A stretch of DNA of 64,000 bases from positions 1,941,501-2,005,500 of the forward strand of contig NZ_CP080545.1 of assembly GCF_019550795.1 (NCBI RefSeq), given 5' to 3'. Shown here one piece after another: positions 19,867 to 42,439 of the stretch. The position numbers were made by a program, and so were the translations under genes. The notes under the pieces were generated by a model. That model saw nothing but the letters and a program-made list of their open reading frames with translations, was not told where the DNA came from and did not search any database. The first letter of the stretch is position 1, and each line of letters begins with the position of its first letter. The DNA comes from Paenibacillus sp. sptzw28. Lineage in GTDB: Bacteria; Bacillota; Bacilli; Paenibacillales; Paenibacillaceae.

Positions 19867-19930
19867 AAACAAAACCAGTGTCGAATTTTAAGTTCATTGC
19901 GAACAAATTCGACATTGGTTTTGTTTTTTT
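19867..19930 (+). terminator. Terminator of the thiamine operon
   Basis: A long hairpin with arms AAACCAGTGTCGAATTT and AAATTCGACATTGGTTT (one mismatch) and extra A/T pairing outside. The right arm runs into GTTTTTTT. Confidence 0.92.
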
Positions 19931-19970
19931 AGCATCAATATTGTGATATAAGCCTAAAGGCGGTACCTCA

Positions 19971-20169: not shown

Positions 20170-20199
20170 TTGTTAGAAGTTTTTGATAATTCATATAAT
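20170..20199 (+). promoter_or_regulatory. Sigma-A promoter of the bacteriocin cluster
   Basis: TTGTTA (20170-20175), an 18-base spacer and a perfect -10 TATAAT (20194-20199). The first structural gene starts 25 bases after the -10, with AAGGAGGTG between. Confidence 0.7.
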
Positions 20200-20223
20200 G
20201 AGTGCGGAAGGAGGTGAAAGAAA

Positions 20224-20433
20224 ATGGAATTGGATTTGGCTGTTACAATCGGACTGCCTGCACTTATCGCCCGCCGTGTCGTTAACCTGGTTCTGGCTGG
20301 GGCATCCTTCTGGTCGATTATGTCGCTTATCATCGCAGGCGGCGGAATCGTTGGTATCGGCATCGCGAGCTTGATCTATCTCGTGAAGCGCAAGCTGAAA
20401 GAGTGGACGGCAGACGCTGTAGTTGCATGGTAA
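20224..20433 (+). CDS. Circular bacteriocin precursor, peptide 1 (AS-48/uberolysin-like)
   Basis: A 69-residue peptide, hydrophobic and cationic. It starts MELD, then LAVTIGLPALIARR, a Gly/Ile-rich centre (IIAGGGIVGIGIASLIYL), KRKLKEW and the end VVAW. Class members such as AS-48 and amylocyclicin have a short leader, four or five short helices, Gly-rich hydrophobic segments, a Lys-rich stretch and a C-terminal Trp that is joined to the N-terminal residue of the mature peptide. Aligned to the second peptide without gaps, a mature form L5-W69 of 65 residues is suggested, with net charge about +4. The ribosome binding site AAGGAGGTG is very strong. The DUF95, ABC and MacAB-like genes downstream support the call. 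No Cys or Thr/Ser-rich core argues against a lanthipeptide. Confidence 0.85.
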   Translation: MELDLAVTIGLPALIARRVVNLVLAGASFWSIMSLIIAGGGIVGIGIASLIYLVKRKLKEWTADAVVAW

Positions 20434-20460
20434 TAACATCATATCGGAGGAGGTAAATAC

Positions 20461-20679
20461 GTGGAACAACTCGCTTTAGAGCTTGTAGCATCGCTTGGTT
20501 TAAGCGTTGAAACCGCATACGCCGTAATTCGCATGGTTATGGCCGGTACTTCCATCTGGTCCATTATCGGCATCATACTGGCTAGCGGCGGCATTATCGG
20601 TATCGGATACGCCACCCTGGTCTATCTGATTAAGCGCAAGTTGAAAGAGTGGTCCTTCAAAGCGGTTGCAGCTTGGTAA
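20461..20679 (+). CDS. Circular bacteriocin precursor, peptide 2
   Basis: A 72-residue peptide starting MEQLALE, then LVASLGLSVETAYAV, the centre IILASGGIIGIGYATLVYL, KRKLKEW and the end VAAW. Over 65 aligned residues, with no gap, 35 are identical to peptide 1 (54%). The segment KRKLKEW and the C-terminal A-W are invariant. The predicted mature ring is L8-W72, also about +4. The start is GTG after GGAGGAGGT. The gene lies 27 bases after peptide 1, so both are made from one transcript. They may act as a pair, or be two independent bacteriocins from a duplication. Confidence 0.85.
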   Translation: MEQLALELVASLGLSVETAYAVIRMVMAGTSIWSIIGIILASGGIIGIGYATLVYLIKRKLKEWSFKAVAAW

Positions 20680-20720
20680 TCGGATAAAGCAACCGCTTTG
20701 AAAGAAAAGGTTGTTACGGA

Positions 20721-20750
20721 AGAGCAGGGAGGCTGCAACCTGCCTGCTCT
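20721..20750 (+). terminator. Partial terminator or processing hairpin after the structural genes
   Basis: Perfect 8-bp arms AGAGCAGG and CCTGCTCT, followed by the weak U-tract CTTTAATC. Such a leaky element would give much more message for the two peptides than for the export genes downstream. From 20751 to 20875 there is no gene; a TATAAT at 20829 lacks a good -35. Confidence 0.5.
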
Positions 20751-20875
20751 CTTTAATCAATAGAAATATCCGCCAAAGGATACACGTTTCTTCCGGATCA
20801 CACCAGAGGCGGCTAAATATAGAAAAACTATAATTTTAACATTAAATTAACATGACAAAGGGTTGTGTGTAAAGC

Positions 20876-22519
20876 TTGAAAAAGTTTTTTTTCTTGCTGC
20901 AAATCCAGCATCTGCTCTACTTTCGCTGGTTCGTCACTCAATTTTTCAGCGCAGCCCGAATTCGGTCCGGTCATGTGGCATTGCTGTTTGCCGGATTGCC
21001 GGTTTTGACGGCAGGGATCAGCTATTTCGTCTTTCGTGCAATATTTCTGTTAACAAGGGCAGGGGGCTATGTGCCGGAAGCGGATCATCTGTCCGCCGCC
21101 TTCTCGGTTATCTATATGCTGCTTGGCCTAACGTTTATTACGGATGCATATAAAGAGGTGTATATTCGCGCATTTCACTCTAAAGATACTGAGTTCGTAC
21201 AGGTCCATTACGGAGCATCCGCCAATGTCCAGTTGATCAAGCTGATTGACGTGTATGCCTGGAAGATCGTATTTCCGTTCGTACCGCTCGTTATCGGGGG
21301 TTCAATCGCCTTTAACGCCATTTTCACTCAGCATATTCCGGCGGGCTGGTACACGACTTCGCTGCTGCTCCTTGCCGCAAGCTCCCTAGCCGTTCGGATT
21401 CTGGTAATGACGGTTTCTTTTCTAAGGCGGAACGGGAGAAAGCTTGGCAGCTCGGCTATAACATTTGTGATGAAATCGGCGCTCTTTGCCGCACTTGGAT
21501 ACTTCGCGATCAGGTGGGTGGGCAGCAGCTCTCTAAGCACCGTAATTGCGGATGAGGCAGGCCGGCTGGCTGCCATCTCCGATACGCTGGCCAGTCCTTA
21601 TATTCCTTCGAACTGGTTGCTCTCGGGGCATTCAGGGTGGTACGCAGCATGGACTGTTTTATTGCTTGCAGCGGCGGTGACGTTGGTTTACCGGCTGCAG
21701 GACAGGTTCATATCGCTTCGGCAGGAATTGCCGGAGACGGTGCTGAACGCCAAGCGGAAGGTCGATCTTATTGGCCGTTGGAATCGGCCGATGTGGAACC
21801 TGTTCGCCAAAGATTTAATGCTGCTCTCAAGGGACCACTATAATGTACTCCCATCCTTAAGAAATTTCGTGCTGATTCTCATGGTCCTGATCGGAATCGG
21901 AACCGGGATCCGCGAGATGGGGTGGCTTCAATCCCCGGCTGTCTCGTTCTCGGCTATGTTTGCCGCTCAGCTCATGCTGTCAAGCTTCGCCGGCTTCCTC
22001 GTATCGCGAGCCACAAGCGTGGACGCGGAAGGGATGATGATGCAGGTTCTGCTGACGCATCTACGGACGCCCAAGAGTATCTATAAAGCGAAAATCATGC
22101 TGCATTTTACGCTGACGACAGCGCTCGGTTTCATGGCAAGCCTCATATTATCCATCGTCCTTAATCTTACTCTCAGCTTGGCGGCATTCAGCCTGCTGTC
22201 GCTTGTGCTTATCAATCTCGTTTCAAGTCTGGCCTCCGTTACATCCTCTGCGATGTACCCCCGTTTCGATTGGGAGGATGAATCCCGGATCGGCACGTCG
22301 GAGAAAGCTTCATTGATCGAGTCGCTTATTTTGCGGGGATACGAATTGATGCACATCACCGTAATGGGCACGTCAGGAGCGATGCTTTACGGCAAAAGAA
22401 TTACCGAGGAGCTGTTTTTTGCCGTGTCGGCTGCGGGAATCGTATTGTCGAGTATGATATGGTGCGCAGTTTTGACGTGGCTGCTCACTAGACCGTGGTG
22501 GAAGGAATGGCGATTGTGA
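20876..22519 (+). CDS. Large polytopic membrane protein of the bacteriocin cluster (As-48B-like role)
   Basis: A protein of 547 residues with about ten or more hydrophobic segments and no soluble domain. The layout is that of a large ABC-2-type permease: VALLFAGLPVLTAGISYFVF near the N-terminus, clusters of segments around residues 70-240, and a second set from LILMVLIGIGTG to the C-terminus. In AS-48-type clusters a membrane protein of similar size follows the structural gene and is needed for maturation and export; I infer the same role here. The TTG start has only a weak site (AAAGGG). Its stop overlaps the start of the ATPase gene, which should supply its energy. No protease motif is visible. 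Confidence 0.7.
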   Translation: MKKFFFLLQIQHLLYFRWFVTQFFSAARIRSGHVALLFAGLPVLTAGISYFVFRAIFLLTRAGGYVPEADHLSAAFSVIYMLLGLTFITDAYKEVYIRAFHSKDTEFVQVHYGASANVQLIKLIDVYAWKIVFPFVPLVIGGSIAFNAIFTQHIPAGWYTTSLLLLAASSLAVRILVMTVSFLRRNGRKLGSSAITFVMKSALFAALGYFAIRWVGSSSLSTVIADEAGRLAAISDTLASPYIPSNWLLSGHSGWYAAWTVLLLAAAVTLVYRLQDRFISLRQELPETVLNAKRKVDLIGRWNRPMWNLFAKDLMLLSRDHYNVLPSLRNFVLILMVLIGIGTGIREMGWLQSPAVSFSAMFAAQLMLSSFAGFLVSRATSVDAEGMMMQVLLTHLRTPKSIYKAKIMLHFTLTTALGFMASLILSIVLNLTLSLAAFSLLSLVLINLVSSLASVTSSAMYPRFDWEDESRIGTSEKASLIESLILRGYELMHITVMGTSGAMLYGKRITEELFFAVSAAGIVLSSMIWCAVLTWLLTRPWWKEWRL

Positions 22520-23271
22520 TGGAAAAGCTTCGGGTGAATAATTTGTCCTATCGTTATAAAGGCACTGACCGGCCTGCTGTGGAACAAATCAGCTTTACAG
22601 TGGAGGAAGGCGAGGTTGTTGGTCTTCTTGGTCATAACGGCGCCGGCAAAACGACCATTCTCAAATGCATTGCCGGCCTGCTGAAGCCGGGAGAAGGCGA
22701 AGCCTCGCTCGGCGGCGCTCCCAGTAAGGAAGGCGGAGGTGCTGAGCCGTCACTCGGCTATGTTCCATCCGACATCTATTTGTACAATTTATTGACTGTT
22801 GAGGAGATGATCCGTTTTACGGCAGGTCTGCATGGGCTGCCCCGGACGGCCTGTGAGAAGCGGATGAACGAATTGCTGCACGTTTTCCAGCTGGACGATA
22901 AGCGGTCCGAATATGTGAAAACCTTGTCTCACGGCATGAAGCAGAAGGTGGCGATGATAACCGGCGTCATCCATCATCCGGGATTGCTTGTGCTCGATGA
23001 GCCGATGACCGGATACGATGCGCTCTCGACGAAGGAGACAAAGACGTTCCTGCTGTCGTATGCGAAGGAGCGCAAGGCCGGCGTTCTGCTATCGTCCCAC
23101 CGGCTTGACATTGTCGAGGACATCTGCCGCCGTGTTGTGGTCATTCATGCAGGAACGATGGTATACAGCGGGGGAATACAGGATTTGAAGAAACAGGCCC
23201 ATGCTTCCGGCACATTGGAGGAAGCGCTGCTGCGTATCTCCGGCGAAGAAGCCGGTCCGGTGAACGAATGA
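22519..23271 (+). CDS. ABC transporter ATP-binding protein of the bacteriocin cluster
   Basis: About 250 residues with all ABC ATPase motifs: Walker A GHNGAGKT, signature LSHGMKQK, Walker B LLVLDEP and switch SSH. The LSHGMKQK form is common in ABC-2-type exporters. It overlaps the preceding membrane protein gene (TGATG; GTG 22516 is another possible start, 9 bases after GAAGGA) and overlaps the SpoIIM-like gene by 4 bases. It therefore probably forms one complex with both. The counterpart in AS-48 clusters is the D gene, linked to export and immunity. Confidence 0.88.
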   Translation: MEKLRVNNLSYRYKGTDRPAVEQISFTVEEGEVVGLLGHNGAGKTTILKCIAGLLKPGEGEASLGGAPSKEGGGAEPSLGYVPSDIYLYNLLTVEEMIRFTAGLHGLPRTACEKRMNELLHVFQLDDKRSEYVKTLSHGMKQKVAMITGVIHHPGLLVLDEPMTGYDALSTKETKTFLLSYAKERKAGVLLSSHRLDIVEDICRRVVVIHAGTMVYSGGIQDLKKQAHASGTLEEALLRISGEEAGPVNE

Positions 23272-23834
23272 AACCGGTCATGCTCAGAGAAGCCCTTGCC
23301 TATGGCTGGACAGTGTTTCGTTCCCTTATTCTCGCCGCTTTCATTCTTTATGCTCTCGGAGCGGTCGCAGGCGCGATTGTGGGAGCCGGTACGCCGATTG
23401 AACAGCTGGAACGTTCGGACCCGGGGCTGTTGTCGAGAAACCCTGCGACCTACATTGTCCATAATACGCAAAGCATTGCTTATTTCATCGGCGGAATGGT
23501 TACGTTCGGACTATCAAGCCTGTTCGCACTGTTGTTCAACGGTTTTTTGATCGGGTACCTGCTTATCGGCCTGATGAAGCATATCCCCGTTATTCCGGCG
23601 CTGCTGCACGTGATACCTCACGGATTGTTCGAGGTGCCGGCGATGCTGCTTGCCGGGGCAGTCGGCCTGTATCCTCTGCGGGCCATTATCCGGTATACAA
23701 AAGCCAAAGAGAAATTCGTCTTCGACTGGAAACCGATACTTGGATGCACTGCGGCGTCCTTACTGCTGCTATGGGTCGCAGGCATGATCGAAGCATGGTT
23801 TACACCGATTGTCGTGATGGCATTAAGCTCATAA
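23268..23834 (+). CDS. SpoIIM/DUF95-family membrane protein (circular bacteriocin maturation or immunity)
   Basis: A protein of 188 residues with about five membrane segments. The family signature is clear: FNGFLIGYLLIGLMKH, then HVIPHGLFEVPAMLLAGAVGL, the H-G-x-F-E-x-P-A core of SpoIIM/DUF95 proteins. A DUF95 protein is a hallmark of circular bacteriocin clusters (AS-48 C, circularin, garvicin ML types), where it is needed for production and contributes to immunity. A sporulation SpoIIM is less likely given its length, position and overlap with a dedicated ATPase. It starts inside an ATGA overlap. Confidence 0.88.
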   Translation: MKPVMLREALAYGWTVFRSLILAAFILYALGAVAGAIVGAGTPIEQLERSDPGLLSRNPATYIVHNTQSIAYFIGGMVTFGLSSLFALLFNGFLIGYLLIGLMKHIPVIPALLHVIPHGLFEVPAMLLAGAVGLYPLRAIIRYTKAKEKFVFDWKPILGCTAASLLLLWVAGMIEAWFTPIVVMALSS

Positions 23835-23860
23835 TTTAGCGAAAGCCGGGAGGGTTAAGG

Positions 23861-24505
23861 ATGGTGCTTACAGATGTGGCGAAGGTGATTGTAAATCCGA
23901 AGCCGATCATGGAAAAATGGATGAAGCGGGAGCAGTTCTTCTCGCTCATTGCGATTATAAGCATTTTCTCGCTCGTGCTTGCGGTTGCGTCCATCTCCTT
24001 CTTCAGGGCGGAAGACATGAGCAAGGTACTCGGATACTCCATCGAATCCGATACCTACGAGGCCTATAAAATTTTTATGATGCTGGGCTCCGGCATCGTC
24101 GCTTTATTCACCCCGGTGGTATTCATATTATTAAACTCGATAGTGAACAAACTGCTTCTTCTGCTGTTCCGGGTCAACATTCCGTTTCGTCAGCTGTTCA
24201 TTCTAGGCAGCTTCGCCTACATCCCGCTGCTGATGGACACGCTCCTCCGTATAGGCATCCAATTGTTTACACTGAAGCCTCTAATGGAGTCGCCAGCCAA
24301 ACTATTCCCGTTTCTGTCCGCTGAGGATTCCCCTATCGCCGGCATGCTTTCGGCTTTGACCGTATTTGGCATTTGGAGCATGCTGCTCTATACGCTCGGT
24401 ATCTATTTGATGTCACCGGAGAATCGCCGTGTCAGAAGCGTGGCGCTGGTGATCGTCACTTGGCTTGCATCGTCGCTCATTTCGGGATATATCGGCGGTA
24501 TATAG
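23861..24505 (+). CDS. Yip1-like membrane protein
   Basis: A protein of 214 residues with about five hydrophobic segments. The opening VIVNPKPIMEKWMKREQFF and the segment FRQLFILGSFAYIPLLMDTLLRIGIQLF are typical of bacterial Yip1-domain proteins. It has its own GGGAGG site, lies 26 bases after the DUF95 gene, and is followed directly by the membrane fusion protein gene. Its position parallels the first gene of the second transport operon in AS-48 (E). A role in self-protection or exporter assembly is inferred. Confidence 0.7.
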   Translation: MVLTDVAKVIVNPKPIMEKWMKREQFFSLIAIISIFSLVLAVASISFFRAEDMSKVLGYSIESDTYEAYKIFMMLGSGIVALFTPVVFILLNSIVNKLLLLLFRVNIPFRQLFILGSFAYIPLLMDTLLRIGIQLFTLKPLMESPAKLFPFLSAEDSPIAGMLSALTVFGIWSMLLYTLGIYLMSPENRRVRSVALVIVTWLASSLISGYIGGI

Positions 24506-24506
24506 A

Positions 24507-25682
24507 GTGAAGAAGACATATATCTGGGCAGCCATTCTGACTGTAGCTGCGGTTGTGACTGTGAATATATGGGTGACCGCTGATCAGCCCTCCTCTTCAT
24601 CAACACCGGCAGTCGTTGCAACCGTTACCGTTCACAAGGAGCGGATGAGCGACTCGATCCTTGCTTCCGGCATCGTTCTGCCGACTGCTGAGGAGAAAAT
24701 TTATCGCGACGGAGAACTGGGTGAATATGATCTACTGGTCCATGAGGGACAGCGAGTGAAGCAGGGAACGCCGCTGCTTCGCTACCACGGGGAAGAACTG
24801 GAACGACAGCTTCGCGATGTGGTTCTTTCAAGAAAGAGGCTGGACCTTCAGCTCGCAGATAATCGGGGGAAAGTGACAGAGCTTCAGCAGCAGTTCAAAA
24901 ACCGGATCAGGACCTTAAGCGGCGATACGGACGGCAGCGACACCGATGCCGCGGTCAATCAAACCGCTGAGGAGCTGCGCGCCTTGCAGCAGCAAATCAA
25001 AGTATCGGAATTTGAGATAAAGGGGCTCGATGAGCAGCGAAAGACGCTTGAAGAGAGGCGCTTGAGTATGCTGGTCAAAAGCCGTATTTCCGGCGTTGTC
25101 CACCGGACGATCACCGAGGACGGGCTAAGCGGCAGCGAGTCAACGGCCCCGATACTTCATATTGTTTCCGAGCCGGAGTACCACATAGCAGGTACGATTA
25201 CGGAATTCGACGCCGTACTCGTTCAGCCGGGACAAACGGTCACCGTTAAGCCGAAGGTTCAACCGGACGTGAAATTGAAAGGCGTAATCCGGAAGATCGA
25301 CTATATTCCCGTAGAAAGCTCCACCGGCGCTGACACTGCCGCACAGAAGGATGCGGTCACGTCTTACCCCGTTGTTATCGATCTTGTTGAGCCCAGCGAT
25401 GCGCTGAAATACGGGTACCATGTATTTATTGAAATCAGCCTGCAGCTGAAAGGCGAGCGGCTGGTCGTCCCCTATCAGGCGGTGCGGAATGAAAACGGCC
25501 AGGAAAGCGTCCTGCTTGTAGAGGGGGGTATCGTGCGCACCCGGCATGTAGTGACAGGCGAATCCAACGACAGCTTCGTCGAAATCGTCGAGGGTCTGAG
25601 GGAAGGGGAACAAATCGTTGCGAACCCCAATACGGAGCTGAAGGACGGTACAGCCGTACAAGCTGAAGGAGCGCCATCGTAA
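24507..25682 (+). CDS. Membrane fusion (periplasmic adaptor-like) subunit of a MacAB-like exporter
   Basis: About 391 residues. An N-terminal anchor (TYIWAAILTVAAVVTVNIW) is followed by beta-barrel and lipoyl-like parts (LLVHEGQRVKQGTPLLRYHG). A long coiled-coil hairpin spans residues ~95-190 (ELERQLRDVVLSRKRLDLQL, EELRALQQQIKVSEFEIKGL). The second lipoyl half and the C-terminal barrel follow (ESVLLVEGGIVRTRHVVTGE). This is the HlyD/MacA family; in Gram-positive bacteria such proteins work with MacB-like permeases, including the F-G-H transporters of circular bacteriocins. GTG 24507 starts just after the Yip1 stop. One base separates it from the permease. Confidence 0.85.
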   Translation: MKKTYIWAAILTVAAVVTVNIWVTADQPSSSSTPAVVATVTVHKERMSDSILASGIVLPTAEEKIYRDGELGEYDLLVHEGQRVKQGTPLLRYHGEELERQLRDVVLSRKRLDLQLADNRGKVTELQQQFKNRIRTLSGDTDGSDTDAAVNQTAEELRALQQQIKVSEFEIKGLDEQRKTLEERRLSMLVKSRISGVVHRTITEDGLSGSESTAPILHIVSEPEYHIAGTITEFDAVLVQPGQTVTVKPKVQPDVKLKGVIRKIDYIPVESSTGADTAAQKDAVTSYPVVIDLVEPSDALKYGYHVFIEISLQLKGERLVVPYQAVRNENGQESVLLVEGGIVRTRHVVTGESNDSFVEIVEGLREGEQIVANPNTELKDGTAVQAEGAPS

Positions 25683-25683
25683 T

Positions 25684-26892
25684 ATGGTGGGTGAATATGT
25701 CAAAATCGCGATTTTCTCGATTGCCGCAAACCGACTCCGTTCATTTTTGACCATGGTGGGCATTATCGTCGGAGTTTCTTCTGTCATCACAATTGTCGCG
25801 ATCGGCCAGAGCGGCGAACAGATGCTTAAGCAGTTTTTCTCTACCGGTGGAAAGCATACGCTGGATATTGATTTCCGGTACTTTGAGGAAGAAGGGGCCG
25901 GAATGGGGGGACAGACGCTTTCGGAGCCGCTGTTCACGGAGCGGGATATCGAACTGATACGGAATATACCGGAAATTTCACAGGTTATCGCCGTCAATAC
26001 GAATACCGCGGAGGCGGGCTATCTGGACAGGAAGGCAAATGTTCAGCTTACAGGCATTTCGCACGGCTATGAAGACATTAACCCCATGAAAATCACCCAG
26101 GGGCGGTGGCTGGCGGCCGCCGATATCCGCCAGAGCAGAAAGTCAGCCGTAATTGGGGAACGGCTTGCCGACAAGCTGTTTAATGGAACATCAGCCCTCG
26201 GTGCGGTAGTGGAGGTGGAGGGGGTTCCTTTTAAAGTGGTGGGCATTGCGGAGGAAGACTCCGGTCCGCTTGCCGGTCTGGCAGGCTCCAGGATGTATGT
26301 TCCTCTTTCCGTTTGGCCGGTTATGTACGGGAAGGACGAGATTCAGGCGCTGACTATTCAGGCTGCGGACGAGAACAAGCTTCAGACCGCAGGCGAGAAG
26401 GCTGTCGAGCTGCTCAACCAAACGAAGAAGAGCAACCGGAAAACAGGCGAGTATACGATATTCAATCTGGAGGAGCTTCGCAAATCGCTCTCTACGATTT
26501 CCCGCATTATGACATCCATTATCGGAGGCATCGCCGGCATTTCCCTGTTCGTAGGAGGGATCGGGGTGATGAACATCATGCTCGTCTCCGTTACGGAGCG
26601 CACGAAGGAAATCGGCATCCGTAAAGCGCTTGGCGCGACGCGTGGTGAAATACTGACGCAGTTTCTGATCGAATCGGTCATATTAACGACAGCCGGCGGT
26701 ATCATCGGGGTTTCGCTCGGATGGGGATGTTCATACCTCGTAAGTATGATTACGCACTGGCCGCCGATGATTTCATGGCCGGTTGTGGCCGGCGGAGTGT
26801 TATTCTCTATGCTCATTGGTATCGGGTTCGGTATTCTGCCCGCAAGCCGGGCTTCCAAGCTGCTGCCGATCCAGGCGCTGCGTCATGAATGA
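25684..26892 (+). CDS. MacB/FtsX-type ABC permease
   Basis: A protein of 402 residues with the four-helix MacB layout. The first membrane segment is near residue 15 (RLRSFLTMVGIIVGVSSVITIVAIG). A large extracellular domain (~45-270) follows, then three C-terminal segments with the FtsX core ISLFVGGIGVMNIMLVSV, TERTKEIGIRKALGA and RGEILTQFLIESVILT. With the adaptor upstream and the ATPase downstream it forms a tripartite exporter. In circular bacteriocin clusters this module adds to immunity by exporting the peptide. Confidence 0.9.
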   Translation: MVGEYVKIAIFSIAANRLRSFLTMVGIIVGVSSVITIVAIGQSGEQMLKQFFSTGGKHTLDIDFRYFEEEGAGMGGQTLSEPLFTERDIELIRNIPEISQVIAVNTNTAEAGYLDRKANVQLTGISHGYEDINPMKITQGRWLAAADIRQSRKSAVIGERLADKLFNGTSALGAVVEVEGVPFKVVGIAEEDSGPLAGLAGSRMYVPLSVWPVMYGKDEIQALTIQAADENKLQTAGEKAVELLNQTKKSNRKTGEYTIFNLEELRKSLSTISRIMTSIIGGIAGISLFVGGIGVMNIMLVSVTERTKEIGIRKALGATRGEILTQFLIESVILTTAGGIIGVSLGWGCSYLVSMITHWPPMISWPVVAGGVLFSMLIGIGFGILPASRASKLLPIQALRHE

Positions 26893-26912
26893 CGGAGGGG
26901 TTGAAAGGTTTC

Positions 26913-27587
26913 ATGAATATCATAGAACTGCGGGGCGTTAATAAGCATTACAGGGGGGCGGAAGACCTTCATATTCTGAGAGATATCAATCTGAATGTGA
27001 CTAAAGGCGATTTTGCCGCTATCATCGGACCGAGCGGTTCGGGCAAATCGACCCTCATGAACGTAATTGGCTTGCTTGATGCGCCGACCTCCGGGGCGTA
27101 CATGCTGGAGCAGCTTGATGTCAGCTTGCTGTCCGATATGCAGGCAGCCAAGGTCCGCAGCCGAAAAATCGGTTTCGTATTCCAGCAATTTAATCTGCTG
27201 GCCCGCCTGAATGCCCTCGAGAATGTTGAGCTGCCGATGATTTATGCAGGCATGCCGAAGAAAGAACGAAGAGAACGGGCGCTCCACTTGTTGGAAATGC
27301 TCGGCTTGGACCATCGATTCCGGCACAGGCCGGCCGAGTTATCGGGCGGGCAGCAGCAGCGGGTCGCAATCGCCCGCGCATTGGCCAATGATCCTGTTCT
27401 GCTGCTGGCTGATGAGCCGACGGGAGCGCTTGATACGAAGACAGGCCACGAGGTGCTGGAACTGCTCCTTCGGCTCAACGAGCAGGGCAACACCATCCTG
27501 CTTATTACTCATGACCCTCAAATTGCCGGGTACACCAAGCGGACTGTCACGCTGCAGGACGGTTCGATCGTCAGGGACGCCATTTAA
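26913..27587 (+). CDS. MacB/LolD-type ABC transporter ATP-binding protein
   Basis: About 224 residues. Walker A is GPSGSGKST, the Q-loop FVFQQFNLL, the signature LSGGQQQR, Walker B VLLLADEPTGALD and the switch ITHD. This is the MacB/LolD class that pairs with FtsX-type permeases such as the one just upstream. ATG 26913 is preferred because the protein then opens MNIIELRGVNKHY, as relatives do, with GGAGGGG 12 bases upstream. ATG 26889, overlapping the permease stop, would add eight residues. Last gene of the bacteriocin cluster. Confidence 0.9.
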   Translation: MNIIELRGVNKHYRGAEDLHILRDINLNVTKGDFAAIIGPSGSGKSTLMNVIGLLDAPTSGAYMLEQLDVSLLSDMQAAKVRSRKIGFVFQQFNLLARLNALENVELPMIYAGMPKKERRERALHLLEMLGLDHRFRHRPAELSGGQQQRVAIARALANDPVLLLADEPTGALDTKTGHEVLELLLRLNEQGNTILLITHDPQIAGYTKRTVTLQDGSIVRDAI

Positions 27588-27633
27588 ACAACCGTGCCGC
27601 GTCTGCCGGTCCATAACTGCAAGTAATAAAAGA

Positions 27634-27679
27634 TAGCCTTCCGATAACAGCCGCCCCTCTGTTATGTGAAGGCTTCTTT
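27634..27679 (+). terminator. Terminator at the end of the bacteriocin cluster
   Basis: Outer arms AGCCTTC and GAAGGCT and inner arms ATAACAG and CTGTTAT around CCGCCCCT, followed by TCTTT. Confidence 0.75.
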
Positions 27680-27791
27680 GGCTGCCAAAAGTGCTGTTTA
27701 CTTTATTTTATGCCCTGTTTCATCAATTGATCGCACGTTAGAATGAAAGAAATACCTCTTATGCCCTGAGCTTCCATTGCTTCGCCGGGTC

Positions 27792-36345: not shown

Positions 36346-36379
36346 CCTATGACATCTTAGCTTGAAGAAGGAGAGGGCT

Positions 36380-39300
36380 ATGGCGAAGAGCAGAAAAGGG
36401 AACAGCCCCAAAGGGCGAAAACCGTTATTTTACGTGGATAATCCGAATGCTTCGGAGTTGAAATGGCTCGACGAGTTGAAAAAAAAACCTGCAGCTCAGC
36501 GCGCGGGTGAGAAAAAAACGGTACAGGTGCATGCTTTTGCTCCGGTTCTGGAGCCTGAGATTCAGTCCCAGCCTCAGGCGGAGCCTCAACCGGAACCTCA
36601 GCAGCAGCAGCAGCCTCACTTTCAGCTTCAAACTCCGCCGCAGCAGCTGCGGGAGGAGGCGTTTTCGACCGTTTTTGAGGCGGTAGACATCTCCAAAACC
36701 TCCGACGCCGCTGAATCGGCAGCGGAGACAGACAAGGTTGAACAAATTGCCAAAGAGACCGAGCTGCCGGCCAGTAAGGAGGCTGAACTGCCGGAAGAGC
36801 TGCCGAAACTTGATTCGGCGAGCAAGGAAGAAATTGCCGAGGAGCGGCGTTTGCCGGATCAACCTCAGCCGTTTGTGTTCACCGACGATATCGCGGACAA
36901 TGCGATCACGACAGACAAAATTGCGCATGGTGCGGTCGATGCGTTTCGGCTGAAAGCCGGTTCTGTCGTCACGCAGACGATTGCCGATTTTGCGGTAGAA
37001 AGCATCAAAATCACGGACGGTGCGATCGTTTCGTCCAAAATAGCTTCAGAATCGATTACCAGCGATCATTTGGCCAAAAACGCTATTTCCGGGTCGAAAA
37101 TTCGCGACCGGTCGATTACGGGGGAGAAGCTGCGCGATAACAGCATCACCTCGGAGAAGCTCGCCGACCGGACGATCAGCGCCGATAAGCTTGCTGAAGG
37201 CTCCATCGAGGCGAAGCATCTGAAGCCGTTTACGATAACCACAGAGATGCTTGACGATCAATCAGTTACAACAAGCAAACTAAAGAGCGGCACGATTCGC
37301 ACTGAAAATATCGCCAACGATGCGATTCATACATCCAAAATAGCGGATGGCTCGGTGACGAGGTCTAAGCTGCGCGACCAATCGGTCACCAGCGAGAAAA
37401 TCGGCTTGGGCGCCATCGAATCCGTACACCTTAAACCCGGACTGCTGCTCGCCGAGCATGTTGCCGCAGGTGTGCTGCTGGGAAAGCATTTGGCCCCGGG
37501 CGAAATCACCGCAAACCATTTAGCCGAAGGAGCGGTCGGGTCAAGAGTGCTGGGGCAAGCAGCGGTCACCGGACCGGCAATCGCGGAGGGAGCCGTCGGA
37601 TCGGCGCATCTGCAGGAAAGGTCCGTAAAAGGAAATCACCTCGCATTAAATGAGCTCGGTGCTGAGCATTTGGCAGACTTAGCCGTTACATCGCCGAAGA
37701 TCGCCGATATGGCGGTTTCAACGATTAAGCTTGTCGACCATGCAGTCACCGCTTCCAAAATAGCCGATCAAAGCATTACAACCACGAAGCTTGCGGACGA
37801 TTCGGTGCAGGGGAAACATCTGGGCCGTGCGAGCGTAAGCTCGGATAAAATTGCTCCTAACAGCATCGAAGAGGGGCATATCACTCCCGGTTCGGTCGGA
37901 CCCAAACAGCTTGCCGCCGGAAGTGTGCAAACCGGTCATTTGGCCGACGGCCTGGTTACAGAACGTAAGCTAGCCGCGAAAGCCGTTCAGCAGGAGCATC
38001 TTGCCGACGGGTCGGTAGGCCGGGCGCAGCTGGCGAACGAATCGGTCAGTGAAAGTAAGCTCACTCCCGGCAGCGTAAGCGGCAAGAAAATAGCCGAAAA
38101 TGCGGTAGGTACGAAGCATTTGGCAGATGAAGCGATCACCTTTCATAAAATATCGCCGGGAGCGATTCGTTCTTATCATTTGTCACCTGGCGCGGTTACC
38201 GAGGAAACAGTATCCAGCGAGGCGATCAGTTCGCACCATTTGCAGCCGGGCCTGGTTAAATCCGCACACCTTGCGGATCTTGCGGTCGGCACCGAATCAT
38301 TGCAGGACGGAGCGGTAAAATCGCAAAAGCTTGCAAACGGAGCGGTTACGGAGAGACATCTGGCGGCAGGAGCTGTTTATTCTCATCACTTGGCAGATCA
38401 TGTCGTTAATTCGCTCAAGCTATCCCCCGATTGCGTTTCTACCGATAAGCTGACTGACTTGGCGGTGACCACAAGCAAGCTTGCCGACGGCAGTGTGACA
38501 TCCGCAAAGCTGGCAATAGGAGCGGTTACGGGCCAACAGCTTGCCCCGCAACTAGTCGGCAGCGAGCATCTGGCTCCGGGAGTTGTCAAAGCTGGCCATC
38601 TTGCGGAACAGACTGTTAATGCCCGTCATCTTGCCGCCGGCGCTGTTGGCAGCGATGCGATAGCAGACGGAGCGGTAACGGCAGTTAAGCTGGCCGCCGG
38701 TGCGATTGAAGGCAATCACCTTGCGGAAGAAGCCATTGACAGCCGGCATTTGTCGGAGCAATCGGTGCTTGGCGTTCATCTTGGCGTCGATAGCGTACGT
38801 GAGATGCATCTGAGCCGCGAGGCCGTTACTGAGGATAAATTGGCTGGCGGCAGTGTCGGCAGCCTTCATTTGCAAAAAGGCGCCATAGGTTCGCAATCCA
38901 TACAGGATAAGGCGATTCTTACCACACATGTCTCACCGGGTGCAATTGGCACAGAGCAGCTGGCCGATTCGTCCGTAGGCAGCTTGCAGCTGAAGAACGA
39001 AAGCGTCCTTCTCCAACATTTAAGCGAGAACGCCGTCGGCACCGATCAGCTTGCGGACGGCGCAGTAACAGGCTCCAAGCTGGCTCCGGTGACAGTTAGC
39101 GGCGAGCATATTCTGCTCGAGACGATTGCGGGAAAACATTTGCGGGCTGAATCCATTCAAGGCTACCATATCCGTAAAGGATCGATCACGCATGTGCATC
39201 TGGCCGGAGAATTGATGGCGTTTGATAAATTCCCGGATGGCGTCATTCACGGCAGCAAAATTAAACCGGGGACAATCGGAGCCGGGCACATTATCCAAGG

Positions 39301-42300
39301 CAGCATAGACGTTGATCACTTGGCGCCCGGTTCCGTAAGCACGGGGCACCTGCAGGAAGGCTCGGTGACCCTGGACAAAATCGCGGAGCGATCGATCACG
39401 ACGGCACATATTATTCCCGGATCCGTCGACAGCTTAGCACTCGCGGACAGCGCTGTTACGAGCGCTAAGCTGGCTTCAGGCGCGGTAGTTGCAGAGTCGC
39501 TGCAGGATGGCGCGGTGACGGAAGCGAAGCTTGCCGCAGGTGCGGTAGGAGTGGATTCGCTTCAGGACAGCGCTGTTACGAGCGCAAAGCTGGCTTCAGA
39601 TTCGGTAGGAGCAGAGTCGCTGCAGGATGGCGCGGTAACGGAAGCGAAGCTGGCCGCAGGCGCGGTAGGAACGGAGTCGCTGAAGGACGGCGCGGTGACG
39701 GGAGCGAAGCTGGCCGTAGGCGCGGTTAAAGCGGAGTCGCTGCGAGACGGCGCGGTGACAGGAGCGAAGCTGGCCGCAGGCGCGGTAGGAGTGGAGTCAC
39801 TGCAGGACGGCGCGGTGACGGGAGCGAAACTGGCCGCAGGCGCGGTTAAAGCAGAGTCGCTGCGGGACGGTGCAGTGACGGTAACGAAGCTGGCCGCAGG
39901 TGCGGTAGGAGCGAAGACGCTGCAGGACGGCGCAGTGACGGAAGCGAAGCTGGCGGCTGGCGCAGTGAGCACGGAGTCGCTGCAGGATGGTGCGGTGACG
40001 GAAGCGAAGCTGGCGGCAGGCGCGGTGAGCACGGAGACGCTGCAGGACGGCGCAGTGACGGAAGCGAAGCTGGCGGCAGGCGCGGTGAGCACGGAGTCGC
40101 TGCAGGATTGTGCGGTGACGGAAGCGAAGCTGGCGTCAGGCGCAGTGAGCACGGAGTCGCTGCAGGATGGTGCGGTGACGGAAGCGAAGCTGGCGTCAGG
40201 CGTGGTGAGCGCGGAGACGCTGCAGGACGGCGCAGTGACGGAAGCGAAGCTGGCGGCAGGCGCGGTGAGCACGGAGTCGCTGCAGGACGGCGCAGTGACG
40301 GAAGCGAAGCTGGCAGCAGGCGCGGTGAGCACGGAGACGCTGCAGGACGGCGCAGTGACGGAAGCGAAGCTGGCGGCAGGCGCTGTAGGAGCGGATTCGC
40401 TGCAGGAGGGCGCAGTCTCCCAAAATAAAATCGCGATACGGTCAATAACGGCTGCACACTTTATTCCCGGATCCGTCGAGAGCGAAGCGCTTGCGGACCG
40501 AGCTGTTACGAGTGCGAAACTGTCGGCGGGAGCGGTGAGCACGGAATCGCTGCAGGACGGCGTTGTTACGAGTACGAAGCTGGCGGCCGGTGCGGTTAGC
40601 GCGGAATCGCTTCAAGATGGCATTGTAACGGGCACGAAGCTGGCGGCAGGCGCGGTGAGCAGGGAATCGCTGCAGGACGGCGTTGTTTCAAGTGCGAAGC
40701 TGGCGGCAGGTGCAGTGAGCGTGGAATCGCTGCAGGATGGCATTGTAACGAGCGCGAAGCTGGCGGCAGGCGCGGTGAGCACGGAGTCGCTGCAGGACGG
40801 CGCGGTGACGGAAGCGAAGCTGGCGGCAGGCGCGGTTAGCGCAGAGACGCTGCAGGATGGCGCGGTGACGGAAGCGAAGCTGGCGGCAGGCGCGGTGAGC
40901 ACGGAGTCGCTGCAGGACGGCGCGGTGACGGAAGCGAAGCTGGCGGCAGGCGCGGTTAGCGCAGAGACGCTGCAGGATGGCGCGGTGACGGAAGCGAAGC
41001 TGGCGGCAGGCGCGGTAGGAGCGGATTCGCTGCAGGAAGGCGCGGTCTCCCAAAATAAAATCGCGATACGGTCAATAACGGCTGCGCACTTTATTCCCGG
41101 ATCCGTCGAGAGCGAAGCGCTTGCGGACCGAGCTGTTACGAGTGCGAAACTGTCGGCGGGAGCGGTTAACGCGGAATCGCTGCAGGACGGCGTTGTTTCA
41201 AGCGCGAAGCTGGCGGCCGGTGCAGTGAGCGTGGAATCGCTGCAGGACGGCGTTGTTACGAGTGCGAAGCTGGCCGCAGGCGCAGTGAGCGTGGAATCGC
41301 TGCAGGAAGGCGCAGTGACGGAAACGAAGCTGGCCGCAGGCGCGGTGAGCGTGGAATCGCTGCAGGATGGCGCAGTGACGGAAACGAAGCTGGCCGCAGG
41401 CGCGGTTAGCGCGGTGACGCTGCAGGATGGTGCGGTTACGGAAACGAAGCTGGCCCCAGGCGCGGTACGCGCGGACTCACTGCAGGATGGCGCGGTAACG
41501 AAAGCGAAGCTCGCAGTGGGAGCAGTTAGCACCGAGACGCTGCAGGATGGCGCGGTGACAGGAACGAAGCTAGCTCTAGGCGCGGTTAGTGGAGAGACGC
41601 TGCAGGATGGCACGGTAACGGAAGCGAAGCTCGCGGTGGGAGCAGTTAGCACCGAGTCGCTGCAGGACGGGGCGGTAACTCTCGGTAAGATTGCGGTACG
41701 CTCGGTAACGACTGCACATTTGATTCCCGGTTCGATCGAGAGCGATTCTTTGCAGGATGGCGCAGTAACCATTGATAAACTCGCCGCTGGCGCAGTCGGT
41801 ACGGAAGCGCTGCAGGACGGTGCGGTAACGGCGGAAAAATTAGCGCCCGGACTGCTCCAGCAGTCTCTCTTATCCGATTCATTGCTCGCAGAAGGCGCGG
41901 TGTCGAACGAGAATTTGGCAGATGCCGCGGTCACAGTCGATAAAATAGCGCAGGAAGCGGTCTCAGCCGATAAAATAGCGCAGGGAGCGGTCACAGCCGA
42001 AAAAATAGCACAGGGAGCGGTCACAGCTGATAAACTAGCGCATGGATCGATAACTGTGGACCATTTAGCGCCGGACGTCATTCCCTCATTAATACCGGTT
42101 GAAATCAGCGGCGCAGAGCTCGAGGATGGAACCATAAGCGTCGAAAAGCTTGATTTTACGCCAATTACAACAATCAAGCAGACGGCTGCCGTTTTCCAGC
42201 AATTCGGTCTGACACCGTACAATTTGTCCGGTCAAGCCGAGCAGTTGGATGTAACGCTCATTTTCGACGAACCTTTCGTAAACGATTCATATGTTTTCGT

Positions 42301-42439
42301 TGCTACTACAGATCAACCATCCTGCTTTGCCGTCATCAAAACAAAAACGCCTTCCGCCATCCAGCTTACGGTTGTGCGGACGCGGATCAGCCCCGAACCT
42401 AAAGGGTTCATTAACTGGATTGCGATAGGTCTCAAATAA
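36380..42439 (+). CDS. Giant decapeptide-repeat protein, probable spore-surface structural glycoprotein
   Basis: About 2,019 residues, no signal peptide. Residues 1-60 are basic (MAKSRKGNSPKGRKPLFYVD). Residues ~60-165 are Pro/Gln/Glu-rich. Residues ~170-1930 are about 175 ten-residue units of the form G-A-V-x-x-x-x-L-x-x, for example GAVTEAKLAA alternating with GAVSTESLQD. The last ~90 residues form a distinct domain (TLIFDEPFVNDSYVFV) ending FINWIAIGLK. Such decapeptides occur in phage tail-fibre and surface-fibre proteins and probably stack as a beta-solenoid. Abundant Thr/Ser suggests glycosylation by the enzymes encoded next to it. The ATG follows AAGGAGAGGG. A sigma-K-like promoter and absent export signal fit mother-cell deposition on the spore. 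A role as tail-fibre-like or adhesive fibre elsewhere is possible. Confidence 0.75.
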   Translation: MAKSRKGNSPKGRKPLFYVDNPNASELKWLDELKKKPAAQRAGEKKTVQVHAFAPVLEPEIQSQPQAEPQPEPQQQQQPHFQLQTPPQQLREEAFSTVFEAVDISKTSDAAESAAETDKVEQIAKETELPASKEAELPEELPKLDSASKEEIAEERRLPDQPQPFVFTDDIADNAITTDKIAHGAVDAFRLKAGSVVTQTIADFAVESIKITDGAIVSSKIASESITSDHLAKNAISGSKIRDRSITGEKLRDNSITSEKLADRTISADKLAEGSIEAKHLKPFTITTEMLDDQSVTTSKLKSGTIRTENIANDAIHTSKIADGSVTRSKLRDQSVTSEKIGLGAIESVHLKPGLLLAEHVAAGVLLGKHLAPGEITANHLAEGAVGSRVLGQAAVTGPAIAEGAVGSAHLQERSVKGNHLALNELGAEHLADLAVTSPKIADMAVSTIKLVDHAVTASKIADQSITTTKLADDSVQGKHLGRASVSSDKIAPNSIEEGHITPGSVGPKQLAAGSVQTGHLADGLVTERKLAAKAVQQEHLADGSVGRAQLANESVSESKLTPGSVSGKKIAENAVGTKHLADEAITFHKISPGAIRSYHLSPGAVTEETVSSEAISSHHLQPGLVKSAHLADLAVGTESLQDGAVKSQKLANGAVTERHLAAGAVYSHHLADHVVNSLKLSPDCVSTDKLTDLAVTTSKLADGSVTSAKLAIGAVTGQQLAPQLVGSEHLAPGVVKAGHLAEQTVNARHLAAGAVGSDAIADGAVTAVKLAAGAIEGNHLAEEAIDSRHLSEQSVLGVHLGVDSVREMHLSREAVTEDKLAGGSVGSLHLQKGAIGSQSIQDKAILTTHVSPGAIGTEQLADSSVGSLQLKNESVLLQHLSENAVGTDQLADGAVTGSKLAPVTVSGEHILLETIAGKHLRAESIQGYHIRKGSITHVHLAGELMAFDKFPDGVIHGSKIKPGTIGAGHIIQGSIDVDHLAPGSVSTGHLQEGSVTLDKIAERSITTAHIIPGSVDSLALADSAVTSAKLASGAVVAESLQDGAVTEAKLAAGAVGVDSLQDSAVTSAKLASDSVGAESLQDGAVTEAKLAAGAVGTESLKDGAVTGAKLAVGAVKAESLRDGAVTGAKLAAGAVGVESLQDGAVTGAKLAAGAVKAESLRDGAVTVTKLAAGAVGAKTLQDGAVTEAKLAAGAVSTESLQDGAVTEAKLAAGAVSTETLQDGAVTEAKLAAGAVSTESLQDCAVTEAKLASGAVSTESLQDGAVTEAKLASGVVSAETLQDGAVTEAKLAAGAVSTESLQDGAVTEAKLAAGAVSTETLQDGAVTEAKLAAGAVGADSLQEGAVSQNKIAIRSITAAHFIPGSVESEALADRAVTSAKLSAGAVSTESLQDGVVTSTKLAAGAVSAESLQDGIVTGTKLAAGAVSRESLQDGVVSSAKLAAGAVSVESLQDGIVTSAKLAAGAVSTESLQDGAVTEAKLAAGAVSAETLQDGAVTEAKLAAGAVSTESLQDGAVTEAKLAAGAVSAETLQDGAVTEAKLAAGAVGADSLQEGAVSQNKIAIRSITAAHFIPGSVESEALADRAVTSAKLSAGAVNAESLQDGVVSSAKLAAGAVSVESLQDGVVTSAKLAAGAVSVESLQEGAVTETKLAAGAVSVESLQDGAVTETKLAAGAVSAVTLQDGAVTETKLAPGAVRADSLQDGAVTKAKLAVGAVSTETLQDGAVTGTKLALGAVSGETLQDGTVTEAKLAVGAVSTESLQDGAVTLGKIAVRSVTTAHLIPGSIESDSLQDGAVTIDKLAAGAVGTEALQDGAVTAEKLAPGLLQQSLLSDSLLAEGAVSNENLADAAVTVDKIAQEAVSADKIAQGAVTAEKIAQGAVTADKLAHGSITVDHLAPDVIPSLIPVEISGAELEDGTISVEKLDFTPITTIKQTAAVFQQFGLTPYNLSGQAEQLDVTLIFDEPFVNDSYVFVATTDQPSCFAVIKTKTPSAIQLTVVRTRISPEPKGFINWIAIGLK
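36886..42165 (+). repeat. Array of ~175 in-frame 30-bp units, homogenised into 60-bp repeats in its second half
   Basis: Every unit is 30 bp (ten codons). From ~39480 to ~41670 two alternating units make a near-identical 60-bp repeat. A boundary element encoding KIAxRSxTxAHxIPGS recurs with its Lys codon at 39377, 40427, 41057 and 41687. Spacings are 1050, 630 and 630 bp, all whole numbers of units. The first half is far more diverged. This points to recent expansion and gene conversion in the second half. Confidence 0.9.

What the first reader, a model, noticed from the sequence alone, without database searches (positions are those of the whole stretch)
20170..27679. A two-peptide circular bacteriocin cluster of the AS-48 type
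Seen: two adjacent ~70-residue hydrophobic cationic peptides ending in Ala-Trp, a large membrane protein, an ABC ATPase, a DUF95 protein with HGLFEVPA, a Yip1-like protein, then adaptor, FtsX permease and ATPase. All are on one strand between one promoter and one terminator. Known: DUF95 protein, ATPase and a second MacAB-like exporter are the hallmark set of circular bacteriocins. Inference: the cluster makes one or two new head-to-tail cyclised bacteriocins in a Paenibacillus-like host. The peptides match none of the named family members I can recall.
Basis: partly seen in the sequence, partly recalled or inferred. Interest (0 to 1): 0.95.

Follow-up and report, generated by a model that had tools for sequence, protein, structure and literature searches.

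The report
Two-ring circular bacteriocin gene cluster
This gene cluster from a relative of Paenibacillus encodes two quite different precursor peptides of the circular-bacteriocin family side by side, likely cut and closed into two ring-shaped antibacterial peptides by one shared set of genes, and because the same kind of unlike pair recurs in a related species the two rings may act together, which has not been tested.

Summary
Window 20170-27679 is a one-strand, nine-gene cluster: two adjacent precursors (69 and 72 aa), a large membrane protein (B), an ATPase, a SpoIIM/DUF95 protein, and a YknW-like (Yip1) protein with adaptor, FtsX permease and ATPase. Both precursors pass the curated cut-offs of PF09221 and TIGR03651. 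Predicted short leaders ending in Asp/Glu leave two 65-residue cores running from Leu to Trp. "AS-48 type" is only loosely right: leader, gene order and B differ, and no immunity-like small gene was found. What is new is the pair: 55% identical, where published multi-copy clusters have about 82-100%. P. arenilitoris has the same gene order with two precursors; P. thailandensis and a metagenome contig also seem to encode a pair, inferred from equal contig lengths. Same-slot peptides agree better across clusters than swapped ones (45 v 34%; 0 of 10000 bootstraps reverse it), but tree tests do not exclude independent duplications. Best reading: two rings made by one machinery, a new variant of a known kind; a cooperating two-peptide ring system is possible and unproven.

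The parts
20170..20199 (+). promoter-like site TTGTTA-18-TATAAT
   Evidence: 10 of 12 matches; not significant on its own
20224..20433 (+). precursor A1 (69 aa): predicted leader MELD (20224-20235), predicted 65-residue core starting LAVTIG and ending VVAW; GGAGG ribosome-binding site, ATG start
   Evidence: cleavage point inferred
20461..20679 (+). precursor A2 (72 aa): predicted leader MEQLALE (20461-20481), predicted 65-residue core starting LVASLG and ending VAAW; GGAGGAGG ribosome-binding site, GTG start
   Evidence: cleavage point inferred
20722..20749 (+). hairpin between A2 and B, followed by TCTTT; likely partial terminator or mRNA processing/stability element
   Evidence: z -3.97 for 20680-20775; z -2.30 and -4.94 for stretches at the same place in L034 and L038
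20876..22519 (+). large membrane protein B (547 aa, TTG start), no Pfam or NCBIfam family at E <= 1
   Evidence: about 50% to P. arenilitoris and P. thailandensis, 30% to L038
22495..23271 (+). ABC ATPase 1 (CirD/As-48D role), overlaps the end of B
   Evidence: 28% to the ATPase of the pPD1 locus
23268..23834 (+). SpoIIM/DUF95 membrane protein, overlaps the end of ATPase 1
23861..24505 (+). YknW-like (Yip1) membrane protein
   Evidence: NF052650, 1.2e-17, under cut-off
24465..25682 (+). HlyD/MacA-like adaptor (start uncertain: the first TTG overlaps the YknW-like gene)
25684..26892 (+). MacB/FtsX-like permease (YknZ role)
26889..27587 (+). MacB/LolD-type ATPase 2 (YknY role)
27629..27679 (+). 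3'-end hairpin, likely terminator of the operon
   Evidence: z -2.76 for 27588-27690; not flagged

Best explanation
The cluster encodes two different precursors of the circularin A/uberolysin family in tandem and one set of maturation and export genes, and it is predicted to make two different 65-residue head-to-tail rings that would insert into and leak the membranes of competing Gram-positive bacteria. Shown here: the family membership of both precursors, the gene set, and the recurrence of the two-precursor arrangement with the same gene order in P. arenilitoris. Inferred: the short leaders (MELD, MEQLALE) are removed, the first Leu is joined to the last Trp of each chain, and B, ATPase 1 and SpoIIM do this and secrete the rings. 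Inferred: the four-gene YknW-like exporter, with SpoIIM, gives the producer its immunity in place of a small dedicated immunity protein. Inferred: the hairpin after the second precursor keeps the precursor mRNA abundant over that of the machinery, as mRNA processing does for as-48A/BC. Because the two precursors stay unlike in related clusters, they likely do different jobs (complementary action or different targets) and are not just extra dose.
For: Both precursors over the PF09221 and TIGR03651 cut-offs; 17 of 17 rows of alignment A4, the two window precursors included, match both families at E <= 0.01. A profile of the group matches the solved circular bacteriocins NKR-5-3B (1.4e-6) and AS-48 (1.9e-5). 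AlphaFold2 models of both give five helices (mean pLDDT 65.4 and 78.6). SpoIIM, ATPase, B and exporter in one run of genes. B-profile relatives stand beside a circular-bacteriocin precursor in G583 and G669 and within 4 kb of one in G600. P. arenilitoris (L034) has A1-A2-B-ATPase-SpoIIM-YknW-adaptor-FtsX-ATPase in the same order. All 8 precursors of the four paired clusters can be cut after Asp/Glu to leave 65 or 66 residues; of the nine known short leaders listed in PMC10028692 (passages) five end in Asp/Glu. Exporter role: as-48EFGH raises production and immunity (PMC6131525, passage); YknWXYZ expels the SDP toxin (PMC4887032, passages).
Against: Nothing was expressed; ring closure and activity are untested. 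No PDB match at E <= 0.001 by Foldseek for either model. No immunity-like small ORF was found, although a review counts one among the basic features; another paper reports clusters without it. In circularin A hydrophobic leader residues were favoured over charged ones (PMC10028692, passage), unlike the leaders predicted here. Tree tests do not reject independent duplications of the precursor.
Confidence: 0.86

Rival explanations
1. Two independent single-peptide circular bacteriocins share one machinery: each ring is fully active alone and the second widens the target range, with no cooperation.
For: Pumilarin and altitudin A, made by one strain from separate clusters, are each active alone (PMC10888436, passages). 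Published multi-gene clusters are read as variants with different spectra (PMC7132975, passages). Both cores here have net charge +4 and similar hydropathy, so neither looks like a helper. The P. larvae-like L038 has a related B with a single precursor.
Confidence: 0.5
2. Gene-dosage duplication: two near-equivalent copies that only raise the amount of one antibiotic.
For: Tandem copies exist elsewhere: in G187 the two precursors are identical at 59 of the 61 residues compared; copies of about 82-100% identity are in print.
Against: Here only 55% identity over the precursors, 35 of 65 core residues, and a difference of this size is present in all four paired clusters compared.
Confidence: 0.06
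3. Immunity, signalling or decoy role: the second peptide is not an antibiotic but protects the producer or acts as an inducer.
For: No dedicated immunity gene was found.
Against: Both peptides match the bacteriocin families over nearly their full length and share the cationic KRKLKEW stretch, the Ala-Trp end and the leader type; known immunity proteins have two to three transmembrane segments and large hydrophilic regions between them (PMC7132975, passage).
Confidence: 0.06
4. Decayed or silent cluster.
For: No TIGR03651 match in the 21 other genus members listed, so recently gained or often lost.
Against: All nine reading frames are open, and the seven machinery proteins keep 41-68% identity to the P. 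arenilitoris set.
Confidence: 0.07

Closest known systems
Circularin A / uberolysin / carnocyclin A group (short-leader, subgroup i circular bacteriocins)
   Same: Family profiles, short leader, about 60-70 residue hydrophobic cationic core, DUF95 plus ATPase plus large membrane protein, accessory exporter
   Different: Two unlike precursors in one run of genes; no dedicated immunity gene found; B without a named family
Enterocin AS-48 (locus on plasmid pPD1, L053; its mature chain matches PDB 1e68 over 70 of 70 residues)
   Same: Precursor, large membrane protein, SpoIIM, ATPase, small membrane protein, adaptor, ATPase, permease; adaptor, permease and the two ATPases 24-44% identical
   Different: Gene order A-B-C-D-D1-E-F-G-H (letters assigned by me) against A1-A2-B-D-C-E-F-H-G; B and E without detectable similarity; long leader; D1 without a counterpart here
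Multi-structural-gene circular clusters (B. cereus BCE-01, B. thuringiensis AFS079576, B. weihenstephanensis SDA_NFFE664; PMC7132975) and two- or three-copy clusters of groups 1, 2 and 5 (PMC8659200)
   Same: More than one precursor gene beside one machinery
   Different: The PMC7132975 copies are about 82-100% identical with independent putative promoters; here 55% identical, 27 bases apart, in one run of genes, and an unlike pair recurs in another species. Identities of the PMC8659200 copies were not in the text I saw
Two-peptide leaderless enterocins L50A/B and MR10A/B
   Same: Pair of cationic peptides with a saposin-like fold; MR10A/B shares a homologous EFGH exporter with AS-48 (PMC10598978, passages)
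   Different: Those are linear, leaderless and about 44 residues (length recalled)
YknWXYZ of Bacillus (SDP efflux)
   Same: Four components: Yip1-type protein, adaptor, ATPase, FtsX/MacB permease
   Different: Sequence; the YknW model is matched under its cut-off; here inside a bacteriocin cluster

Membership tests
Circular bacteriocin (circularin A/uberolysin family) | precursor matches TIGR03651 / PF09221 over cut-off | tested here: met
   both precursors
Circular bacteriocin (circularin A/uberolysin family) | DUF95/SpoIIM protein in the cluster | tested here: met
   PF01944 7.4e-23
Circular bacteriocin (circularin A/uberolysin family) | ATP-binding transporter protein in the cluster | tested here: met
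Circular bacteriocin (circularin A/uberolysin family) | large membrane protein (CirB role) | tested here: met
   position and size; remote profile matches (E 1e-10 to 1e-15) in G583, G669 and G600 near a circular precursor; role not shown
Circular bacteriocin (circularin A/uberolysin family) | small dedicated immunity gene (usual, not universal: also missing in the pumilarin cluster, PMC10888436) | tested here: not met
   gaps examined by eye; of 20 further + strand ORFs of 35-130 aa none has a 19-residue mean hydropathy over 1.37, so none has a clear transmembrane segment
Circular bacteriocin (circularin A/uberolysin family) | head-to-tail peptide bond in the product | not testable with these tools
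   needs mass spectrometry
Circular bacteriocin (circularin A/uberolysin family) | antibacterial activity | not testable with these tools
   needs an assay
AS-48 subtype | B homologous to the AS-48 large membrane protein | tested here: not met
   no blastp match at E <= 1, profile score -34 bits
AS-48 subtype | gene order ABC-(C1)-D-D1-EFGH | tested here: not met
AS-48 subtype | long leader | tested here: not met
   predicted leaders of 4 and 7 residues against 46 residues ahead of the mature chain in the pPD1 record
Two-peptide bacteriocin | both peptides needed for full activity | not testable with these tools
   needs single deletions and mixing of purified rings
Two-peptide bacteriocin | two unlike genes kept side by side across lineages | tested here: met
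   DNA seen for the window and P. arenilitoris; P. thailandensis and a JGI contig only by equal contig length
Two-peptide bacteriocin | one ancient duplication (A1s and A2s each one clade) | tested here: inconclusive
   best trees partly show it; independent duplication not rejected, p-AU 0.17-0.37

The most novel reading that the evidence does not exclude
This is the first true two-peptide circular bacteriocin: two unlike 65-residue rings, made by one machinery from an old, conserved gene pair, that must combine (as a mixed pore or a sequential pair) for full killing, a circular counterpart of enterocin L50A/B, with self-protection by a four-part YknW-type exporter.
Probability: 0.28. Interest if true: 0.75.

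Novelty: new variant of a known kind. Interest (0 to 1): 0.5.

Why it matters
Circular bacteriocins are very stable antibacterial peptides, and how the ring is closed is still not understood (PMC8659200, section 2.5: no enzyme identified). A cluster whose one machinery likely closes two unlike cores, with paired variants in related bacteria, shows which residues the machinery tolerates (the Asp/Glu-Leu/Ile cut, the Trp/Tyr end, the Ala-Gly-x-Ser-x-Trp stretch). If the two rings cooperate, it would be a mode of action for ring peptides that did not appear in the listings.

Tried and rejected
AS-48 subtype: compared gene by gene with the pPD1 locus; rejected for B, gene order, leader and D1. The AS-48 gene letters on pPD1 were assigned by me from order and product.

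Fold search: no useful result; the best PDB match of the A1 model was an AS-48 mutant at E 1.9 (TM 0.54), and the A2 model's matches held no bacteriocin. Models are of moderate confidence (mean pLDDT 65.4 and 78.6).

Plasmid collection: no match to A2 or to B. Genome-contig scan with the two-peptide alignment: one locus, P. arenilitoris. First protein search with A2: 2 proteins, the window's own and P0002. The B search scored only the 7995 candidates sharing most words and gave 2, the own one included.

Single ancient duplication against independent duplications: not decided. Within-cluster identity (43.4%) is about as high as same-slot identity across clusters (45.0%), P 0.37, so partial homogenisation or independent duplication with parallel change remains possible. 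Pairwise BLAST is mixed: A2 of the window prefers A2 of P. arenilitoris in both settings, while A1 prefers A1 without composition adjustment (61.6 against 42.4 bits) and A2 with it (34.3 against 30.4 bits); seen from P. arenilitoris A1, the better score is the window's A1 without the adjustment (61.6 against 59.3) and A2 with it (32.3 against 30.4).

Clean empty site: in G021 both flanking blocks exist without the cluster, but about 0.66 Mb apart, so no simple insertion can be shown.

Gene-dosage reading: rejected for 55% identity; the G187 pair (59 of 61) served as the example of a recent copy.
Full report
Observation. The cluster is real. Nine genes on the + strand fill 20224-27587: two precursors, a 547-aa membrane protein (B), an ATPase, a SpoIIM/DUF95 protein, a YknW-like protein, a HlyD/MacA-like adaptor, a MacB/FtsX permease and a MacB/LolD-like ATPase. 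B and ATPase 1, ATPase 1 and SpoIIM, and permease and ATPase 2 overlap, which suggests coupled translation. Upstream lie thiG-, thiO- and thiD-like genes (my names from the sequences; no family call was made on them); downstream a histidine kinase, a response regulator and sugar-transport-like genes (named by sight).

Precursors. A1 (20224-20433, 69 aa) and A2 (20461-20679, 72 aa) both exceed the curated cut-offs of PF09221 (34.2 and 31.8 bits; cut-off 23.6) and TIGR03651 (40.7 and 34.5 bits; cut-off 30.7). They are the only matches to TIGR03651 in the 6.1-Mb genome at E <= 1. They are 55% identical (52% by the count), and 35 of 65 residues agree over the predicted cores. A profile of the group finds NKR-5-3B (1.4e-6) and AS-48 (1.9e-5) among solved chains, and also a designed protein, dTor_6x35L, at 3.3e-5, which I take as chance. 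AlphaFold2 gives five helices for each, as AS-48 has (PMC4284732, start of the abstract in the listing). Foldseek found no PDB match at E <= 0.001 for either model, so the structure gives only weak support.

Predicted processing. Aligned on the family, the leaders are MELD and MEQLALE and the cores 65 residues each, from Leu to Trp, net charge +4, ring masses 6799.2 and 6924.3 Da. In all 8 precursors of the four paired clusters a cut after Asp or Glu leaves 65 or 66 residues. PMC10028692 (passages) lists nine short leaders of known circular bacteriocins; five of them (MDILLE, MFD, MLYE, MLFE, MLLE) end in Asp or Glu. The same paper found hydrophobic leader residues favoured over charged ones in circularin A. 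The cut is inferred, not measured.

Relatives. In 394 genomes of the family, TIGR03651 finds a match at E <= 0.001 in 8, the window's own included (at most 14 candidates scored per genome), and none in the 21 other genus members, each listed with 0 matches. Gene B finds 3 of 394: the window's own, G425 (50%) and one weak partial match. Its locus L034 has two precursors and then B, ATPase, SpoIIM, YknW-like, adaptor, permease and ATPase in the window's order, with 41-68% identity for the seven machinery proteins. The first precursor starts with ATG and the second with GTG in both. TIGR03651 at E <= 0.001 found only the first of these two precursors in G425, and below the cut-off (26.2 bits, G425:C1:143837-144034), so model-based annotation can miss such pairs.

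More pairs. The last protein search, with a six-row alignment, gave 24 proteins, the window's two included. Three further pairs are inferred because both partners have the same longest-contig length: P0017 and P0002 (JGI, 5254 bases), P0011 and P0018 (P. thailandensis, 141294 bases, the same length as for its B protein P0004), and P0006 and P0009 (2282 bases), which are 97 and 99% identical to the P. arenilitoris pair. So there are likely four distinct paired clusters, one of them seen twice. I read DNA only for the window and P. arenilitoris. Single precursors of the same branch occur in P. larvae (P0010 and others); locus L038 of the unnamed G168 is similar, with a B at 30% and no adaptor, permease or second ATPase match in 19.9 kb.

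Is the pair old? Within-cluster identity is 52% (window) and 35% (P. arenilitoris); between the window and the JGI contig A1s agree at 72% and A2s at 78%. Across the two sub-branches, same-slot peptides agree at 45.0%, swapped ones at 34.2% (0 of 10000 column bootstraps reverse this); for the window against P. arenilitoris alone 46.5 against 31.9% (P 0.0001). The JGI and P. thailandensis peptides were put into slots by similarity, as no DNA order was seen. Against this: the within-cluster value, 43.4%, is about as high as the same-slot value (P 0.37), and pairwise BLAST pairs the A1s only without composition adjustment. Best trees put the A1s together and the A2s together, without strong support, and the AU test does not reject one duplication per sub-branch (p 0.17-0.37). 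I conclude that slot identity is largely kept, that both genes were already unlike before the window and JGI lineages split, and that a single older duplication is favoured but not shown. As a contrast, the tandem pair of G187 agrees at 59 of 61 residues.

Comparison with print. PMC7132975 (passages) describes multi-structural-gene clusters with copies of 81.58-100% identity and independent putative promoters, read as duplications. PMC8659200 (sections 2.2 and 2.5 read; passages) mentions two or three precursor copies in groups 1, 2 and 5 and Yip1 proteins in several groups; copy identities were not in the text I read. In one search none of the 12 papers listed (of 14) holds 'two-peptide circular bacteriocin' or 'two-component circular bacteriocin'; the titles and abstract starts listed (20 of 81; 20 of 88) show no such report. 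None of the 15 papers listed (of 94) holds the names P. arenilitoris or P. thailandensis. The library lacks most subscription journals.

AS-48 type? The pPD1 locus (L053) encodes AS-48 itself: its last 70 residues match the solved AS-48 chain over 70 of 70 positions (7.2e-39). Its order is A-B-C-D-D1-E-F-G-H. The window's ATPase 2, permease, adaptor and ATPase 1 are 44, 34, 24 and 28% identical to their counterparts; SpoIIM is weakly similar (E 0.019; profile 1.1e-4); B and the YknW-like protein show no similarity to B and E there; D1 has no counterpart. With a predicted 4-7 residue leader the cluster belongs with the short-leader group. A profile of B finds relatives in 5 other genomes of 299 in the class; 4 of those 5 carry a circular-bacteriocin precursor, beside B in G583 and G669, 3.8 kb away in G600, and on another contig in G619; G741 has none. 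So B is likely a distant branch of the usual large membrane protein.

Mechanism. Likely steps: translation of many A1 and A2 chains from one message; removal of the short leader; joining of Leu1 to Trp65; export by B, ATPase 1 and SpoIIM. In circularin A, cirBCD do maturation and secretion (PMC10028692, passage); loss of the DUF95 protein of leucocyclicin Q traps the ring in the cell (PMC7132975, passage). Immunity: no immunity-like small gene was found, neither in the five gaps (by eye) nor among 20 further + strand ORFs of 35-130 aa, whose highest 19-residue hydropathy mean is 1.37. The YknW-like, adaptor, permease and ATPase set resembles as-48EFGH, which raises production and immunity (PMC6131525, passage), and YknWXYZ, which expels SDP (PMC4887032, passages). 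I infer that it protects the producer, with SpoIIM. Regulation: a hairpin follows the last precursor in the window (20722-20749), in L034 and in L038 (z -3.97, -2.30, -4.94 for stretches that I chose by eye). In AS-48 the as-48ABC message is cut into parts of different half-life to set the stoichiometry (PMC3942455, passages); a similar role here is inferred.

Origin. GC is 57-64% in the thi block, 44% in the first kilobase of the cluster, 52-54% in the rest and 48-52% after it. In G021, the genus member with the closest kinase (75%) and thiD (68%), both flanks are present without the cluster but about 0.66 Mb apart. Gain by transfer is likely; a clean insertion site could not be shown.

Verdict. 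A new variant of a known kind: a circular bacteriocin cluster with a conserved unlike pair of precursors. The identification is firm; ring closure, activity and cooperation are untested.

Noticed in passing
PMC7132975 (passage) reports two clusters per strain for P. larvae.
   Followed up: partly
L035 (G187), matches G187:C44:34720-35145: Another tandem precursor pair, identical at 59 of 61 residues, with a different machinery order (adaptor-ATPase-permease): a recent duplicate.
   Followed up: partly
window 36362-42439: A 2025-aa reading frame made of many short repeats of the type 'LQDGAVTEAKLAAGAVSTES'; looks like a repetitive surface or filament protein.
   Followed up: no
L038:12614-12946: The SpoIIM reading frame of the single-precursor, P. 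larvae-like cluster is short (110 aa) and no second exporter was matched nearby; the cluster may be reduced.
   Followed up: no
P0020, P0021, P0022, P0025 (Clostridium perfringens and unnamed): A related branch of 69-aa precursors with very short leaders and the same GASIWAI stretch.
   Followed up: no
window 19873-19931: Long near-perfect inverted repeat followed by a run of T after thiD, a likely terminator that separates the thi genes from the bacteriocin cluster.
   Followed up: no
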